From a virus: a DNA stretch of 64,000 nt. The stretch lies in IMG/VR virus record IMGVR_UViG_3300047566_000267, positions 1 to 64,000 of that record; one strand, given 5' to 3'. Each line of letters begins with the position of its first letter. Position 1 is the stretch's first letter. Made by a program: the position numbers and the translations under genes. Below, piece by piece: positions 3,404 to 26,997 of the stretch. The notes under the pieces are model-generated. The model saw only the letters and a program-made list of their open reading frames with translations, was not told where the DNA came from and did not search any database.

Positions 3404-3640
3404 TGTGGCTGAATACTCAGTACCATGGGTGCTGAATGTCTTTCTTCTGTCCAGACAGCTCTGAAATGTGAGGCCCTTAGATTTTATAGACGAGACTCGC
3501 ACGTCATTCTACATCTCTCCATCAAATAACGCACCCTGTAAGTGCTATCCTATTCTATGACTATATTCATAGAGTCTTTCATCCTCAGACCTTCAGGGTG
3601 TCAATTCACCAAGTAGGACTATTTGATTTCAAGCAGAAGA
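3404..3640 (-). ncRNA. candidate structured non-coding RNA, ~240 nt
   Basis: No credible reading frame occupies this stretch. It is rich in complementary segments forming nested helices: 3521-3527 (ATCAAAT) with 3621-3627; inside that 3532-3538 (CACCCTG) with 3594-3600; inside that the hairpin 3555-3560/3567-3572 and a small GTCT/AGAC hairpin at 3574-3590. A 7-bp hairpin is at 3418-3434. It lies between tRNA-Gln and the terminator at 3349-3403, so it is probably cotranscribed with the tRNA/tmRNA cluster. I do not recognise it as a known RNA family; a group I core was looked for and not found. Confidence 0.5.
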
Positions 3641-3645
3641 AATTG

Positions 3646-3716
3646 TAGTTACCAGTGGGCTCGAACCACTACAAACAGAACCAAAATCTGTTGTGCTACC
3701 ATTACACCAGGTAACC
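3646..3716 (-). tRNA. tRNA-Gln (anticodon TTG)
   Basis: Full cloverleaf: acceptor GGTTACC pairs with GGTAACT (first pair G-U), D-arm with the GTAATGGTA loop, anticodon stem ACAGA/TCTGT with loop TTTTGGT (anticodon TTG, reads CAA), variable loop TTGT, T-arm AGTGG-TTCGAGC-CCACT, discriminator A. CCA is not encoded. CAA is common in the late genes of this phage, so the tRNA probably supplements the host pool. Confidence 0.9.
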
Positions 3717-3717
3717 A

Positions 3718-3819
3718 TTAAAAACAAAGACTTCAGGAGCTTCACCTGCCTTCTAAATAAACATGGAACCTCTCAGTTAAGAGTCAGAACCGAGCTTTCT
3801 TACTTTGTCTTTGTTTTTG
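3718..3819 (-). ncRNA. tRNA-like three-helix element
   Basis: A 12-bp closing helix (AAAAACAAAGAC at 3720-3731 with GTCTTTGTTTTT at 3807-3818) encloses two hairpins: on the minus strand CTCGGTT/AACTGAG (7 bp, 9-nt loop) and CAGG/CCTG with a 7-nt loop. Part of the sequence resembles a tRNA-Lys(CTT) anticodon region (TCTGACTCTTAA), but there is no D-arm and no TTCRA T-loop. It directly abuts the next tRNA-like element. Options are a decayed tRNA, a processing spacer, or a tRNA mimic. Confidence 0.45.
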
Positions 3820-3894
3820 CAGTCAGGACAGGACTTGCACCTGTGATTGGAATTACTTAAGTTTTCTAAAAGTCCACCATTCCACTACCTGACT
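3820..3894 (-). tRNA. tRNA-like element with abnormal anticodon arm (possibly Leu TAA)
   Basis: Acceptor AGTCAGG/CCTGACT (7 bp, extendable to 8) and T-arm ACAGG-TGCAAGT-CCTGT are convincing, and GTGGAATGGT resembles a Leu-type D-loop. Between them the anticodon stem does not form properly: the best reading gives loop CTTAAGT (anticodon TAA, Leu) on a stem with two A-A mismatches and about four extra bases before it, and there is no long Leu variable arm. It may be a decayed or strongly divergent tRNA. The decoding assignment is weak. Confidence 0.4.
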
Positions 3895-3922
3895 GTTTAC
3901 TTGTCTATTCCAAGTTGTCTAG

Positions 3923-4293
3923 TGGAGCTGCCGGGAGTTGAACCCGGGTCCAAACATATTTAAAAATCATAAGTTACAAGCTTGCACTAGCTTTTTCTTC
4001 CCTGGCTTGGAATATCACGGTTGTAAACCGGCAACTATTTTGATCTGTCACTTTTAGCAGCCTGATCAGTACACCTTCCCATTTAATTTAAAGACTTAGG
4101 TATGTCTTTTGGCTAGAGATTAAGCAGCCATAGCTACTTCACCGAAGATTTCTGCAAGCAGAGAATCAACATTGCCACCGAAAGATACGTTAGACGTTTC
4201 TACATTTATTGTTAGTGTGTTTACTTTAAACTCAACACCATTGTTCTGCTTGCCTATTTTCCTTAACTTATGCTGTCGAAACCAGTCAGCCCC
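3923..4293 (-). ncRNA. ssrA: tmRNA (ssrA) with a long proteolysis tag
   Basis: The 5' end GGGGCTGACTGGTTTCGACA and the 3' end with T-arm CCGGG-TTCAACT-CCCGG and acceptor CAGCTCC are diagnostic for tmRNA. The acceptor pairs over 7 bp and contains G3-U70, the alanine identity pair; discriminator A follows at 3923 and CCA is not encoded (CTA instead). The tag frame runs from about 4200 to the TAA at 4122-4120. It encodes 25-26 residues (resume codon GAA or ACG) starting ETSNVSFGG and ending EIFGEVAMAA. Tags of Bacteroidetes hosts are about 9 residues, so this tag is unusually long. The RNA would rescue stalled ribosomes and mark products for ClpXP-type proteases through the AMAA end. Confidence 0.92.
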
Positions 4294-4349: not shown

Positions 4350-4568
4350 TTACTTTTTGAGAAATTCTATTTCATCAGGTGCACCTGTGAGCTTTTTGTA
4401 AATTAATTGAGCTTTAGCTGCAGATATAGCAGCACTATAAGCTTTGATAGAAAGATCACATACTTTGAGGTCCTTAGAATCTTCCCACTGTTTGTTAAGT
4501 GTATCCCCAACATTTGCCATTGTTTTGATGACATCACTTATTACTGTTTCCTTTTTCTTTTTTTCCAT
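4350..4568 (-). CDS. small helical phage protein, 72 aa
   Basis: A 72-residue protein, basic start (MEKKKKETV) then helices including IKAYSAAISAAKAQLIYKKLTG and the ending PDEIEFLKK. The pattern (A..I..A.K.QL.YKK..G.P..I.FL) matches a widespread family of small uncharacterised phage proteins that I recognise without a known function. Its first 35 bases overlap the 3' end of the HNH-like gene in another frame, and its end lies 9 bases before the hairpin upstream of tmRNA. Confidence 0.7.
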   Translation of the reverse strand: MEKKKKETVISDVIKTMANVGDTLNKQWEDSKDLKVCDLSIKAYSAAISAAKAQLIYKKLTGAPDEIEFLKK

Positions 4569-5139
4569 CTCTTTTGAGTTTTAGTTGTTTACGTTTAAGT
4601 TCTACAAGTTCTTGAGAAATATCTGCATGTTTAATAGTATCATTGGTACCAACTATACATTGTTTTATATAACAAGTAGAAAGATTGGCAGTAATTTTTC
4701 TTTTATTCTCTTTTATTCTTTCTTGATTATTCTTTCTATAATTACGTGCATAACTTATACTTTTTGAAAGATAAGATTTTGATTTTTCAGGAAATCTTAT
4801 TCTATAATCTTTAGAATATTTTATTTTTTTATCTCTATTATTATTATAAGTTTTTTTCCTTTGTATTTTTGTTCTCACAGGATCAGCTTCTCTAAATCGT
4901 TTAGCTGTATCTGCTTTTCTTCTTTTTCTTACTGGGTCTTCTTTATATTTCAAATAAGACTTTTTAGCTACTTCTTTCCGTATTTCAGGGTTTTTATTAT
5001 TATATTGTTTTATTCGATTTTGATCACACTTTTTACAAACATGTTCCTTACCAAATCTACATGACCTATTTGATTTAAAGTCATTTAAACTTTTTTCTTT
5101 ACCACATTTTTTACAAATTCTTGTTATAGGTGCTTGCAT
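4534..5139 (-). CDS. zinc-finger/HNH-type homing endonuclease-like protein
   Basis: The N-terminus holds a zinc finger (CKKCGKEKSLNDF, then CKKC about 20 residues later) typical of phage HNH/free-standing homing endonuclease proteins. It is followed by Lys/Arg/Tyr-rich repeats of the form YxxxNPEIRKE... Y... READPVRTK. The C-terminus HADISQELVELKRKQLKLKR matches the tail seen in this family (IPxELIExKRxxLxIKR). I start at the Met at 5139 (201 aa); the frame is open to an earlier Met at 5175, which falls inside the RNA inverted repeat. It begins 34 bases after the folded RNA that contains the permuted tRNA and overlaps the 72-aa gene. Catalytic HNH histidines are not obvious, so activity is uncertain. 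Confidence 0.65.
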   Translation of the reverse strand: MQAPITRICKKCGKEKSLNDFKSNRSCRFGKEHVCKKCDQNRIKQYNNKNPEIRKEVAKKSYLKYKEDPVRKRRKADTAKRFREADPVRTKIQRKKTYNNNRDKKIKYSKDYRIRFPEKSKSYLSKSISYARNYRKNNQERIKENKRKITANLSTCYIKQCIVGTNDTIKHADISQELVELKRKQLKLKRDGKKEKGNSNK

Positions 5140-5172: not shown

Positions 5173-5431
5173 CACCTACTGTGTAGGAAAATAGATAAGA
5201 TCAAAATCAAAAGCAAAAACAAAGACCTTCTCTGCTACAAAGGCAAAGTCAAAAACCAAGATTTATTCTATGGTTTTTAGTTTTGCAGAGAAGCGGTGTG
5301 TTTATCTATTTCTTTTGCTCTACCACTGAGCCACCTTTACTAAGTAAAGGATGGGAGTCGAACCCATGACCCAAAGAACCGTTTAGATGTTATCTTATTA
5401 TTTTTTTATAAAAAATCCTACACAGCAGGTG
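5173..5431 (-). ncRNA. folded RNA enclosing a permuted tRNA
   Basis: The ends of this 259-nt stretch pair as a 16-bp helix (5173-5188 with 5416-5431, one G-U). The adjacent 5189-5198 (AAATAGATAA) pairs over 10 bp with 5302-5311, immediately after the 5' half of the tRNA. Inside, 5227-5235 pairs with 5285-5293 (CTTCTCTGC/GCAGAGAAG) and encloses the 8-bp hairpin 5251-5258/5271-5278. One continuous strand (5173-5198) therefore holds both flanks of the split anticodon loop close together, like a splint. No coding frame is plausible here. It sits between the hairpin ending the 312-aa gene and the HNH-like gene. A circularly permuted intron is one explanation, but I found no clear group I P3/P7 core. 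Confidence 0.65.
5311..5377 (-). tRNA. circularly permuted tRNA (3' half before 5' half)
   Basis: On the minus strand the order is: anticodon 3' strand TCTTT, variable GGGTC, T-arm ATGGG-TTCGACT-CCCAT, acceptor 3' strand CCTTTAC (5350-5344), three-base linker TTA, acceptor 5' strand GTAAAGG (5340-5334), TG, D-arm GCTC-AGTGGTA-GAGC, A, anticodon 5' strand AAAGA (5315-5311). All stems pair (acceptor 7 bp, anticodon 5 bp, D 4 bp, T 5 bp), so this is one tRNA broken in the anticodon loop and joined through the acceptor end. The discriminator would be T. The anticodon depends on how the halves are joined and cannot be read; a normal U33 is not obvious. Confidence 0.8.
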
Positions 5432-5435
5432 TGAA

Positions 5436-5471
5436 GGTATAAGGGGATCAGCTTGTGCTTACCCTTATACC
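5436..5471 (-). terminator. hairpin after the 312-aa gene
   Basis: A 10-bp stem (GGTATAAGGG at 5436-5445 with CCCTTATACC at 5462-5471) 13 bases past the stop of the 5484-6422 gene. Only a weak T tract follows, so termination may be partial; it separates that gene from the permuted-tRNA RNA. Confidence 0.5.
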
Positions 5472-5483
5472 ACCATTTCATTA

Positions 5484-6422
5484 TTACTTAGTACCTTCTT
5501 CTTCTTTTTCCTTCGGCATCAACTCATCAACCACACTCTGGAATCTCTTATCCACCTGGATACGTAACTCAGAGATTCCTTTGATTGTGGTTAACTTAGC
5601 AGCTTCAAAAACATCAATCTCTATCTTGACAGCATCCCTGTACTTTTGAAGTTCTTTAGAATGCTCATCCATGATCTTATGGTTCTCTGTATACACCTTT
5701 CCAGACTCAACAGAGTTGTCTCTGTTGATTTCTGCATTCTTTGCAGTTACCAGGTTCTTTACTTTGGCCTTGTAATAATTGACCTTCTGCTCATGTACCC
5801 GGTGGATATTAGCCAAATCCTGATGAATATTCCACAAATCCATTTCTGTATGGTGAGCAGATATTGTTACAGGATATGCTTTACCTTCATGGCCCGGAGC
5901 TACAAACCATTCTACCGGCTCTAAAAGAGGCAATTCTTTCCTCAGCTTATCTAAGGTACCACCTTTATGGATAAACTGGCCTATTACAGCTGCCATGGCC
6001 TCAGCTTCCCAGTATTCAGCCATTTCAGCTGCTGTAAGCTGATCCCAACCCCATTGGTCATTTACCAGAGGAATTTCTTTGTACTGAATAAGAGCTGCTC
6101 TTTCAGGTTCTTTGGCTACAAATTCTGTAAGCCTTAGAGTTTTGGCACCTGTGAGCAATGCATCCTTAGCTTTTATCTGCTCCATAAGGAATGCCTGGCA
6201 TGCCCGGTACTCACCAATAAGTTTGAGCTGATCTTCCAAAGTAGTAGGAATTTTTACTCCCACCTGCTTGGTAATTTCATTACCACCAAAGTCTAAAGTC
6301 TTTGAGCAGTTATTGATTTTTGACAAAGCAACCATCATTTCATTGGCTGCTTGGTTGCACAAATTACTAATTGTTTGTGCCTGGGTCATTGATAGACCGT
6401 TCTTTGCGAGTGAATGTTTCAT
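5484..6422 (-). CDS. hypothetical helical protein, 312 aa
   Basis: A 312-residue soluble protein, mostly helical, with likely coiled-coil stretches at about 210-300 (HRVHEQKVNYYKAKVKNLV, and later KELQKYRDAVKIEIDVFEAA) and an acidic end KEKEEEGTK. A central segment (WGWDQLTAAEMAEYWEAEAMAAVIG, about 125-150) is Trp/Glu rich. No family recognised. Start chosen at 6422 after an AT-rich leader. Its first 56 bases overlap the end of the small membrane protein gene, and a later start (Met about 29) would remove the overlap. Context gives no function. Confidence 0.7.
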   Translation of the reverse strand: MKHSLAKNGLSMTQAQTISNLCNQAANEMMVALSKINNCSKTLDFGGNEITKQVGVKIPTTLEDQLKLIGEYRACQAFLMEQIKAKDALLTGAKTLRLTEFVAKEPERAALIQYKEIPLVNDQWGWDQLTAAEMAEYWEAEAMAAVIGQFIHKGGTLDKLRKELPLLEPVEWFVAPGHEGKAYPVTISAHHTEMDLWNIHQDLANIHRVHEQKVNYYKAKVKNLVTAKNAEINRDNSVESGKVYTENHKIMDEHSKELQKYRDAVKIEIDVFEAAKLTTIKGISELRIQVDKRFQSVVDELMPKEKEEEGTK

Positions 6423-6824: not shown

Positions 6825-7165
6825 GGGTGAAAACTCTTTAAAAAGAAGTAATGCGAAGCATTACATGCATACAGAAAAGACACAATTGGATTACCTGTGT
6901 CTTTCAATGCTTCTTTAGTAAAGTAAGAGGCAAAACACCTTGCTGCATATTTGATTCTTTTGTAACTGATCCTGAGACTAATCACATCAAAATACATAAA
7001 GTTTATTAGTGCAATGCCGGTAGTGAATAATCCACAGAAGTAAAACAAAAAATGTTTATCTATTATTATAGTAGGATTATGCACTAGGTAATAAGCATCC
7101 CAGTCAAGTATTATGACAAGTACTAAGCATAGTAGTACTATTGCATCTGTAGTTTTCTTTTTCAT
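6815..7165 (-). CDS. membrane protein, 116 aa
   Basis: A 116-residue protein: basic start MKKKTTD, hydrophobic helix about 8-28 (AIVLLCLVLVIILDWDAYYL), second helix about 38-60 (HFLFYFCGLFTTGIALINFM), then a basic amphipathic region (RISYKRIKYAARCFASYF). Predicted two-pass inner membrane protein. Start overlaps the stop of the small upstream gene by ATGA (7165-7162) and its end overlaps the 70-aa membrane gene. Three consecutive membrane proteins imply an envelope-directed module, perhaps exclusion of competing phages. That role is inference. Confidence 0.6.
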   Translation of the reverse strand: MKKKTTDAIVLLCLVLVIILDWDAYYLVHNPTIIIDKHFLFYFCGLFTTGIALINFMYFDVISLRISYKRIKYAARCFASYFTKEALKDTGNPIVSFLYACNASHYFFLKSFHPCE

Positions 7166-7317
7166 GCTGGCTCCAGTTCATCTACAAAAGTAGTGTTAAC
7201 AATAATAGCATTTGGAAAATACATTTCCATATCTGCCCATGTACCGGTAAATTCTTTGATGATGGCATTCTTAGCTCTTTTCATCTTGAATACGAATTTG
7301 AGTATTTCTTTTTCCAC
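7162..7317 (-). CDS. short protein, 51 aa (GTG start) or 40 aa
   Basis: A short frame ends in a TGA that overlaps the ATG of the membrane protein gene (ATGA). With the GTG at 7317, after an A-rich leader, it gives 51 residues starting VEKEILKFVFKMKRAKNAII; with the ATG at 7284 it gives 40 residues (MKRAKNAIIKEFTGTWADME). It ends NTTFVDELEPA. The overlap and filled gap argue it is real. No family recognised. Confidence 0.5.
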   Translation of the reverse strand: MEKEILKFVFKMKRAKNAIIKEFTGTWADMEMYFPNAIIVNTTFVDELEPA

Positions 7318-25374: not shown

Positions 25375-26997
25375 ATGGCTACTCCAATTTTAAACAACGG
25401 TATTGCACTTCGTGATAACGTGTATGAGGTAGGGTCAAATTACGACTCTTATCACCTGTACAATATGATGAAAGATGCAAAACCTACAGACTTAGGTCCT
25501 ATTGAGTTTTGGGCAAATACTCAAATTGCACAAATGCCCCTGTATGCATTTTCTAATTTTGGTAAAGGTAATACCATAGATGTGGATGACCCAAGGGGCC
25601 GTTACACATGGCAGACACCGGTTGCTAATGATCTTCCTCAAATCACAAGGGACATTGACCCTACAGATACCAAAAAAGGTCTGGCAGAAAGGTCTTTCCG
25701 TATTGTGCTTAACCGTAGGGAGTATGGTCATACAGCAGTTCTTACTTTTGATAAATACCGTGGTCTGGAGTTCCGTGTAACTGAAGATCCTATTGTGTCA
25801 ATGGGTAACAACGAATTTGTTTACACATGTAAACTGATCAACAACAACTCTTCTGCTTACCTGGACAATAAATATCTTACACCTGGTACCAAGGTATTCC
25901 GTGTTACTTCAGGCCGTGGTGAATATGGTGAAAGGTGGGATGATGTAGTAAGCCGGGCTGGTTACAGGGAGTTCTATAACATCCTTGGTAATGCAGAGGC
26001 CAATGCTTCTTATCACATCAGCCGTAAGGCAGATTGTATGATGAGGAATGGTCAGAATACAGGTGGTATTCCTGTAACTGAGATCTGGAAGATCAATGAT
26101 CCTTCTCTTCGTGCTGATCCTTCACTCCGTAGTCTGGAAGACATTTCTACTCGTCTGGGACAGGTAGGTATGCTGAAAGCAATGAAAGAAGGACAAATTA
26201 GCAAGGCATTTATCACAGAGATTGAACGTCAGGCAATTAAGAAAGTAACCGGTGACCTGGAAACTTACCTGATGTGGGGTAAAGGTGGTCGTGTTCAGCA
26301 GGATGGTCCAGATGATCTGAGGTTTTCTACAGGTCTGTGGGTACAGTCTGACAACGGTTATAAGAAAGTGTACAACATTGGTACTTTTACTACCGACATG
26401 TTCAACTCAGAAATTTACAACTACTATGTAGGTAAAGTAAACTTTGAGGGCCCTGATCCTAAACGTAAATTGATTGTTCAGACTGGTCTGGCAGGTATGC
26501 AGCAGATGAACAATGCCATCAAACAGCTGGCTATTAACTCCGGCCTGGTTACCAATGCACATGAACTGGGTGCTATTAAGGGCGAAGCTCTTGACCTGGA
26601 CTTTGGTTATGCTTACACAAGCTACACTATTCCATTCTTGGCTAACCTGAAATTTGTCATCAACCCGGCATTTGACAATGTTGAAGCTAATGAAATTGAA
26701 AACCCAATTATCAATGGTTTCCGTCTGTCATCTTACTCTTACATCATATTTGATGTAACTGACCGTGGTACAGACAACATCAAAATGCTCCGTGATAAGT
26801 ATGATCATGAGTTCCATTGGTTGTACCAGAATGGTACTGCTGACTACATGGGTCGTGATAAAGGCTTCCAGTCTTCTGCTGATTTTAACGGGTATAAGGT
26901 GAAAATGTTCCAGAAACAAGGTGCACTTGTGGTAATGGACCCCACCAGGTTGCTCAAAATTGTGGCTAAAAACCCAATCACAGGATACAGCCTTTGA
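25375..26997 (+). CDS. major capsid protein, 540 aa
   Basis: 540 residues in the position after portal and scaffold. The sequence has mixed alpha/beta HK97-like character (PQITRDIDPTDTKKGLAERS; later LMWGKGGRVQQDG). Codon use differs from the neighbours: CGT for Arg and GGT for Gly are preferred, as expected for the most abundant virion protein. It starts with ATG after an AT-rich leader (AATAAATAAAATGG). A homing endonuclease gene is inserted immediately after it. Confidence 0.8.
   Translation: MATPILNNGIALRDNVYEVGSNYDSYHLYNMMKDAKPTDLGPIEFWANTQIAQMPLYAFSNFGKGNTIDVDDPRGRYTWQTPVANDLPQITRDIDPTDTKKGLAERSFRIVLNRREYGHTAVLTFDKYRGLEFRVTEDPIVSMGNNEFVYTCKLINNNSSAYLDNKYLTPGTKVFRVTSGRGEYGERWDDVVSRAGYREFYNILGNAEANASYHISRKADCMMRNGQNTGGIPVTEIWKINDPSLRADPSLRSLEDISTRLGQVGMLKAMKEGQISKAFITEIERQAIKKVTGDLETYLMWGKGGRVQQDGPDDLRFSTGLWVQSDNGYKKVYNIGTFTTDMFNSEIYNYYVGKVNFEGPDPKRKLIVQTGLAGMQQMNNAIKQLAINSGLVTNAHELGAIKGEALDLDFGYAYTSYTIPFLANLKFVINPAFDNVEANEIENPIINGFRLSSYSYIIFDVTDRGTDNIKMLRDKYDHEFHWLYQNGTADYMGRDKGFQSSADFNGYKVKMFQKQGALVVMDPTRLLKIVAKNPITGYSL

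What the first reader, a model, noticed from the sequence alone, without database searches (positions are those of the whole stretch)
5311..5377. Circularly permuted tRNA gene in a phage
On the minus strand the 3' half (anticodon 3' strand, T-arm, acceptor 3' strand) precedes the 5' half (acceptor 5' strand, D-arm, anticodon 5' strand), joined by only TTA. The acceptor (GTAAAGG/CCTTTAC), D, T and anticodon (AAAGA/TCTTT) stems all pair. A normal tRNA-Gln nearby has the usual order, so this is not a reading-direction error. Permuted tRNA genes are known from some algae and archaea; I know of no established case of this arrangement in a crAss-like phage. The three-base linker leaves little room for normal 3'-end and RNase P processing, so the mature product could be a circle or a tRNA mimic.
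Basis: partly seen in the sequence, partly recalled or inferred. Interest (0 to 1): 0.93.

Follow-up and report, generated by a model that had tools for sequence, protein, structure and literature searches.

The report
Y-RNA-type tRNA mimic in a phage
The scrambled 'tRNA' in this crAss-like phage is very probably not a gene for a working tRNA but the tRNA-imitating part of a small RNA related to bacterial Y RNAs, a known type of RNA, found here in an unusual setting without the protein (Ro60) that Y RNAs normally bind.

Summary
On the minus strand, window 5377-5311 has all tRNA arms in permuted order, with the 7-bp acceptor stem capped by TTA. A relative found by synteny (L003) keeps every stem with different sequence: 9 two-sided compensatory changes in 19 pairs. 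The interpretation needs changing. The same permutation, with a closed acceptor hairpin, marks the tRNA-like module of bacterial Y RNAs (YrlA, Rfam RF02553; PDB 6CU1). Rfam's YrlA model matches here at 41.8 bits (E 2e-7, below its cut-off of 69). A model built only from nine Ro60-linked phage modules scores the window at 60.8 bits, against 17 for the next window hit. So this is a tRNA mimic with a closed acceptor end, not a permuted tRNA gene or circle precursor. It is still not a textbook YrlA: no Ro60-side motif, no Ro60 (TROVE) gene in the partial genome, and a roughly 260-nt scaffold with a covarying basal stem, a conserved side hairpin and an endonuclease-like gene downstream. The same split holds elsewhere: all 16 sampled TROVE records carry the motif; 12 of 14 without TROVE lack it. 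Best reading: an orphan Y-RNA-type tRNA mimic. Its function (decoy or tether) is inferred.

The parts
5311..5377 (-). tRNA-like module in permuted order: anticodon-stem 3' strand 5377-5373, T arm 5367-5351, acceptor 5350-5344 / 5340-5334 capped by TTA (5343-5341), D arm 5331-5317, anticodon-stem 5' strand 5315-5311
   Evidence: Direct reading; RF02553 YrlA 41.8 bits; model R2 60.8 bits without window or L003 in training; compensatory changes against L003
5416..5431 (-). 5' arm of the 16-bp basal stem (CACCTGCTGTGTAGGA)
   Evidence: Fold with z -5.4; 6 two-sided compensatory changes of 16 pairs against L003, with one bulged A in L003 left out
5173..5188 (-). 3' arm of the basal stem (TCCTACACAGTAGGTG), followed by a U-rich tract (ACATTTTGTTTT)
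   Evidence: As above; the U-rich tract is also present in L003
5225..5297 (-). Conserved side hairpin (ACCGCTTCTCTGCAAA ... GCAGAGAAGGT), apex expanded by about 60 nt in L003
   Evidence: Near-identical in L003; only the L003 contig was found as a true homologue in scans of viral contigs for its two strands
5436..5471 (-). Upstream hairpin with conserved loop TAAGCACAAGCTGA; may belong to the RNA or to the end of the upstream operon
   Evidence: Stem largely exchanged between window and L003 while the 14-nt loop is identical
4534..5139 (-). Downstream gene (ATG at 5139), 201 aa, zinc-ribbon/HNH-type protein; a similar gene is also downstream in L003
   Evidence: Weak PHROG matches to endonuclease VII 1.8e-5 and endonuclease 6.7e-4; synteny
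5484..6422 (-). Upstream gene, 312 aa, unknown function, syntenic in L003 (60% identity)
   Evidence: no Pfam or PHROG family

Best explanation
The element is the tRNA-like module of a Y-RNA-type (YrlA-like) noncoding RNA of about 260 nt. The RNA is closed by a long basal helix and carries the tRNA-like module and a second conserved hairpin. The permutation is structural: the module hangs on its anticodon-equivalent stem and its acceptor arm ends in a triloop, so it can fold into the L-shape of a tRNA but cannot be charged, trimmed by RNase P or used by the ribosome (shown: order, pairing, covariation, homology of the module to Ro60-linked Y-RNA modules; inferred: the L-shape and the lack of processing). 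Most likely it works in trans as a tRNA decoy or tether that engages host proteins recognising the tRNA elbow (modification enzymes, PNPase-type nucleases or tRNA-targeting nucleases). It apparently does so without the usual Ro60-binding stem (inferred; I give the trans decoy/tether function about 0.35).
For: Rfam YrlA match at exactly this place, E 1.9e-9 to 2.3e-7 depending on search size, with the model's own consensus showing the same permuted order and a 3-nt acceptor cap. Model R2, trained only on nine modules from TROVE-positive phages, scores the window 60.8 and L003 60.1 bits, in the range of chromosomal Y RNAs in genomes with TROVE matches (L232 62.6, L223 62.2, L254 61.9), while the next hit in the window scores 17.1. 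Compensatory changes in all variable stems, including the basal stem. Covariation over 18 modules 0.83 against 0.19 in shuffles (modules partly selected for pairing). Capped acceptor loops throughout. No anticodon loop and no encoded CCA. Literature: YrlA has D, T and acceptor arms like tRNA, is modified by DusA and TruB and tethers PNPase to Rsr (PMC8394870); its module has been proposed as a competitor of an anticodon nuclease (PMC7790460).
Against: The YrlA score is below Rfam's cut-off (41.8 against 69), because the Ro60-binding stem does not align. Sub-threshold YrlA hits occur in 13 of 14 control genomes at E <= 1, so that score alone would not suffice. No TROVE gene was found in the 68-kb record or in the L003 record, though both are fragments and TROVE detection is weak for divergent members. 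Only one true homologue of the full scaffold is known. Expression has not been shown.
Confidence: 0.82

Rival explanations
1. A true Y RNA that recruits the host's Ro60 (Rsr): the phage supplies the RNA, the host the protein, and the module steers PNPase or other nucleases.
For: The module is homologous to Y-RNA modules; there is a long basal stem; Ro60-linked Y RNAs are common in phages: 347 phage records match an L001-type Ro60 and 14 of 27 distinct phage records tested here (not a random sample) carry TROVE.
Against: The 5' motif next to the module that accompanies TROVE in 16/16 records is absent from window and L003 (motif defined after looking). No TROVE in either record. The host is unknown.
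Confidence: 0.25
2. A cis-acting leader: the structured RNA controls translation or processing of the downstream endonuclease mRNA, with the tRNA-like arm as a sensor of tRNA-binding factors.
For: It lies directly upstream of the same kind of gene in both relatives, and the conserved block runs into the start of that gene.
Against: The basal stem is followed by a U-rich tract before the gene, consistent with a separate RNA. No ribosome-site pairing was demonstrated.
Confidence: 0.2
3. A functional circularly permuted tRNA gene matured through a circular intermediate, as in red algae and some archaea.
For: All arms present in permuted order.
Against: No anticodon loop with U33; acceptor of 5 bp in L003; acceptors capped by stable tetraloops in relatives; the splicing endonuclease/BHB route is not known from bacteria (own knowledge); the match is to YrlA.
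Confidence: 0.03
4. A permuted group I intron (natural PIE) that circularises a tRNA exon.
For: The break falls at the anticodon stem; homing-type endonuclease nearby.
Against: No group I match in cmscan of the region even at relaxed E-value, although Intron_gpI is found in another phage (L047) of the same set. The flanks form a simple basal helix and hairpin.
Confidence: 0.02
5. Chance or assembly artefact (two broken normal tRNAs).
For: Tandem tRNAs elsewhere can imitate the layout (several pattern hits were tandem arrays).
Against: The two halves pair with each other in all stems with compensatory changes in L003, and no other half-tRNA is adjacent.
Confidence: 0.01

Closest known systems
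YrlA bacterial Y RNA (Rfam RF02553; Salmonella YrlA, PDB 6CU1)
   Same: Permuted T-acceptor-D order, short cap on the acceptor arm, module attached through the anticodon-equivalent stem, elbow nucleotides of D and T loops, a basal helix joining the 5' and 3' ends
   Different: Ro60-side motif not found, no Ro60 gene in the available record, larger scaffold (about 260 nt against 90-150 nt given in PMC8394870), extra conserved hairpin on the 3' side, score below Rfam's cut-off
Phage Y RNAs linked to a phage Ro60 (reported in mycobacteriophages; proposed in Listeria phage CKA15, PMC12282133; L001 and ten others here)
   Same: Same tRNA-like module in a phage genome; a model trained on nine of them finds the window at 60.8 bits
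   Different: Those have TROVE genes and the GTTAYYTC-type motif; the window and L003 have neither
Circularly permuted tRNA genes of Cyanidioschyzon merolae and relatives (own knowledge)
   Same: 3' half precedes 5' half
   Different: Those carry a full anticodon arm after joining and are processed to real tRNAs; here there is no anticodon loop and the acceptor is capped
Viral tRNA-like structures (TYMV, BMV)
   Same: Viral RNA imitating tRNA
   Different: Those imitate tRNA at the RNA's 3' end (own knowledge); their permutations against tRNA are non-circular (PMC11472068)

Membership tests
YrlA-type Y RNA | tRNA-like module in permuted order with T, acceptor and D arms and a closed acceptor loop | tested here: met
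YrlA-type Y RNA | Score above the Rfam gathering threshold for the whole RNA | tested here: not met
   41.8 bits against 69
YrlA-type Y RNA | Basal stem joining 5' and 3' ends | tested here: met
   16-bp stem, 6 two-sided compensatory changes against L003
YrlA-type Y RNA | Conserved Ro60-binding sequence in the stem | tested here: not met
   Motif present in 16/16 TROVE records, absent in window and L003; motif defined here by inspection
YrlA-type Y RNA | Associated Ro60 (TROVE) protein | tested here: inconclusive
   None in the 68-kb record or in L003's 45-kb record, but both are fragments and the host may supply it
YrlA-type Y RNA | Binding to Rsr/PNPase, modification by DusA and TruB | not testable with these tools
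   Needs biochemistry
Circularly permuted tRNA gene | Joined halves give a complete anticodon arm with a readable anticodon | tested here: not met
   Bases after AAAGA are AAT and before TCTTT are CGGT; no U33-anticodon-R37 loop is formed
Circularly permuted tRNA gene | Linker removable to give 5' and 3' ends | tested here: inconclusive
Processing itself was not assayed
Permuted group I intron (PIE) | Group I core flanking the tRNA halves | tested here: not met
   No Rfam group I match; a permuted core could escape a linear model
Permuted tmRNA | tmRNA permuted model match at this place | tested here: not met
   No tmRNA_permuted match at 5311-5377; only an 11-bit T-arm match to tmRNA

The most novel reading that the evidence does not exclude
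tRNA-like modules of the Y-RNA type are used by a second, Ro60-independent class of RNAs in phages (window, L003, L027, L047, L058, L066, L091, L092 and others) and in some bacterial chromosomes (L212, L216, L261, L267), for example as decoys that shield phage translation from tRNA-targeting host nucleases.
Probability: 0.35. Interest if true: 0.68.

Novelty: new variant of a known kind. Interest (0 to 1): 0.42.

Why it matters
It removes a tempting but wrong claim (a permuted tRNA gene in a phage). It also shows that the Y-RNA tRNA mimic occurs in a crAss-like phage in a scaffold without a recognisable Ro60 site. If Ro60-free tRNA mimics are a real class, the tRNA-like module is a portable RNA part with a function of its own, which would make the unsettled question of what that module does testable in phage infection.

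Tried and rejected
(1) Group I intron / PIE: no Rfam support. (2) Tandem normal tRNAs: many pattern hits were such arrays; removed by ARAGORN overlap and by testing which halves pair. (3) The repeated GTTACTTC-type units in L001, L050 and L096 first looked like a ribozyme; they are Y-RNA stems, recognised once YrlA matches and TROVE genes appeared. (4) Scans for more full-scaffold homologues by the side hairpin and the upstream protein: only L003. (5) Near relatives by capsid protein (L130-L140, including records of 95-135 kb) have neither the element nor TROVE, so it is not universal in this lineage. (6) BLAST of the locus against isolated phages: nothing. (7) MAFFT alignment of the whole locus misaligns the module; helices were compared by hand-set strands instead. 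(8) Short possible peptide reading across the conserved 3' block (ILVFDFAFVAEKVF...): changes between the relatives are not biased to third positions; not pursued.

Full report
Observation. All four stems pair completely, the two acceptor strands are joined by TTA, and the T-loop and D-loop carry the nucleotides that form the tRNA elbow. ARAGORN and Rfam's tRNA model see only the ordinary tRNA-Gln and a tmRNA in the neighbourhood. A finder for the permuted layout produced 2 hits in 20 shuffled copies of 2.46 Mb of held sequence, so chance is not a serious option.

Homology. The gene upstream (312 aa) has one relative in the viral collection, 60% identical, on a 45-kb contig (L003). It was found without reference to the RNA. 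Directly downstream it has the same permuted module with almost wholly different stem sequences: anticodon stem ACATC/GATGT instead of TCTTT/AAAGA, acceptor CAAGC-ATA-GCTTG instead of CCTTTAC-TTA-GTAAAGG, T stem ACAGG/CCTGT instead of ATGGG/CCCAT. Nine of 19 pairs changed on both sides and still pair; the four D pairs are invariant. Around the module both relatives have a long basal stem (window 5431-5416 with 5188-5173; 6 of 16 pairs compensated, one bulged A in L003), a nearly identical side hairpin (5297-5225) and an upstream hairpin whose stem is exchanged but whose 14-nt loop is identical. The whole region folds better than 200 shuffles (z -5.4). So this is a larger structured RNA, not an isolated tRNA.

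Identity. In a relaxed Rfam scan the only informative family at the site is YrlA, the bacterial Y RNA (41.8 bits, E 2.3e-7; cut-off 69). The printed alignment shows that the YrlA consensus itself has T arm, acceptor, 3-nt cap, acceptor and D arm in this order. Rfam's control shows that weak YrlA hits occur in ordinary genomes, so I made an independent test. A pattern scan of viral contigs gave further permuted modules. In a subset, the flanks carry a recurrent GTTAYYTC-type motif and the records encode TROVE/Ro60 proteins. A covariance model built only from nine of these (R2) scores the window 60.8 bits and L003 60.1, in the range of chromosomal Y RNAs from genomes with TROVE matches (L232, L223, L254: 61.9-62.6), while the second-best hit in the window scores 17.1. 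The tRNA-like module of the window is therefore homologous to that of Ro60-linked Y RNAs. Published work describes YrlA as a tRNA-like domain with D, T and acceptor arms, modified by DusA and TruB and tethering PNPase (PMC8394870), and its crystal structure as a circular permutation of tRNA (PMC11472068). The primary papers (Chen 2014; Wang 2018) are not in the held library, so these points rest on papers that cite them.

Why not a permuted tRNA gene. There is no anticodon loop to be made at the break (AAAGA followed by AAT; TCTTT preceded by CGGT). The L003 acceptor has only 5 bp. Across relatives the acceptor arm is mostly capped by classical tetraloops (GAAA, GCAA, GTAA, TTCG, TCCG) or triloops (ATA, CTA, CTT, TTA), as expected for a permanent cap. 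Nothing suggests RNase P or CCA processing, but processing was not assayed.

In what it differs from YrlA. The Ro60-side motif next to the module occurs in 16 of 16 TROVE-positive records, phage and bacterial, and is missing in 12 of 14 TROVE-negative ones, including window and L003. The motif was defined by inspection, so the Fisher p of 1e-6 is only indicative; of the two exceptions, L091 looks like a chance match and L173 like a real Y RNA whose protein the Pfam model misses. TROVE was not found in the 68-kb record of the window, in the L003 record or in eleven relatives by capsid protein, nor by a profile built from held Ro60 proteins against window and L003 reading frames. The records are fragments, and the host could supply the protein. 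The whole RNA fails the Rfam cut-off. I therefore do not file it as a YrlA member, but as an RNA with a YrlA-type module (new variant of a known kind).

Mechanism. Shown: order, pairing, covariation, homology of the module, absence of the Ro60-side motif. Inferred: tRNA-like L-fold, no charging, action through proteins that recognise the tRNA elbow. A decoy or tether in trans is my first choice (about 0.35); a true Y RNA using host Ro60 (0.25) and a cis leader of the endonuclease gene (0.2) remain open. The conserved U-rich tract after the basal stem favours a separate RNA, but no transcript data exist.

Lineage. The window's major capsid protein matches the Crassvirales capsid family and is only 26% identical to the best named phage, a Leptolyngbya phage, so the host is uncertain. 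Its closest relatives by capsid lack the element.

Context. Phage-encoded Ro60 is common (347 phage records match an L001-type Ro60), Y RNAs have been reported from mycobacteriophages (cited in PMC12282133), and my searches of the held library found no paper describing a permuted tRNA gene in a phage. The surprise that remains is modest: a Y-RNA-type tRNA mimic in a crAss-like phage without Ro60, and hints that such orphan modules are widespread.

Noticed in passing
window 3922-4293 (-): A complete one-piece tmRNA gene in a crAss-like phage (Rfam 99.6 bits), tag VETSNVSFGGNVDSLLAEIFGEVAMAA as called by ARAGORN.
   Followed up: no
window 3820-3894 (-): A divergent tRNA-like gene just under Rfam's cut-off (28.2 against 29 bits) with acceptor CAGTCAG/CTGACTG, a TAG anticodon-like loop and a T-loop TGCAAGT; missed by ARAGORN.
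   Followed up: partly
window 3716-3822 (-): A stretch closed by a 12-bp A/T-rich stem (AAAAACAAAGAC/GTCTTTGTTTTT) holding a Lys(CTT)-like anticodon loop (ACTCTTAACT) and a T-arm-like hairpin; possibly a degenerate or mimic tRNA.
   Followed up: partly
window 3500-3640 (-): A further intergenic stretch downstream of tRNA-Gln with ATCAAATA/TATTTGAT ends and inner inverted repeats; fold only slightly better than shuffles (z -1.6).
   Followed up: partly
L001 8200-8800 (-): Tandem array of about five Y-RNA units, two with permuted tRNA-like modules, about 0.6 kb from a phage Ro60 gene; the same 165-kb phage has 31 tRNAs and a permuted tmRNA.
   Followed up: partly
L212 2968-3106, L216 about 1767-1835, L261 1704-1772 (Bacteroidota) and L267 997-1066 (Ruminiclostridium): Chromosomal tRNA-like modules in genomes with no TROVE match, in three of them chained with further T-arm/acceptor hairpins; possibly a separate RNA family.
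   Followed up: partly
L003 about 7140-7210: The apex of the conserved side hairpin holds an extra insert of about 60 nt that folds on its own (GTAGT...ACTAC); absent from the window.
   Followed up: no
window 25375-26997 (+): Crassvirales capsid whose best named relative is a cyanobacterial phage (Leptolyngbya phage Lbo-JY46, 26% identity), so the host may not be a gut bacterium.
   Followed up: no
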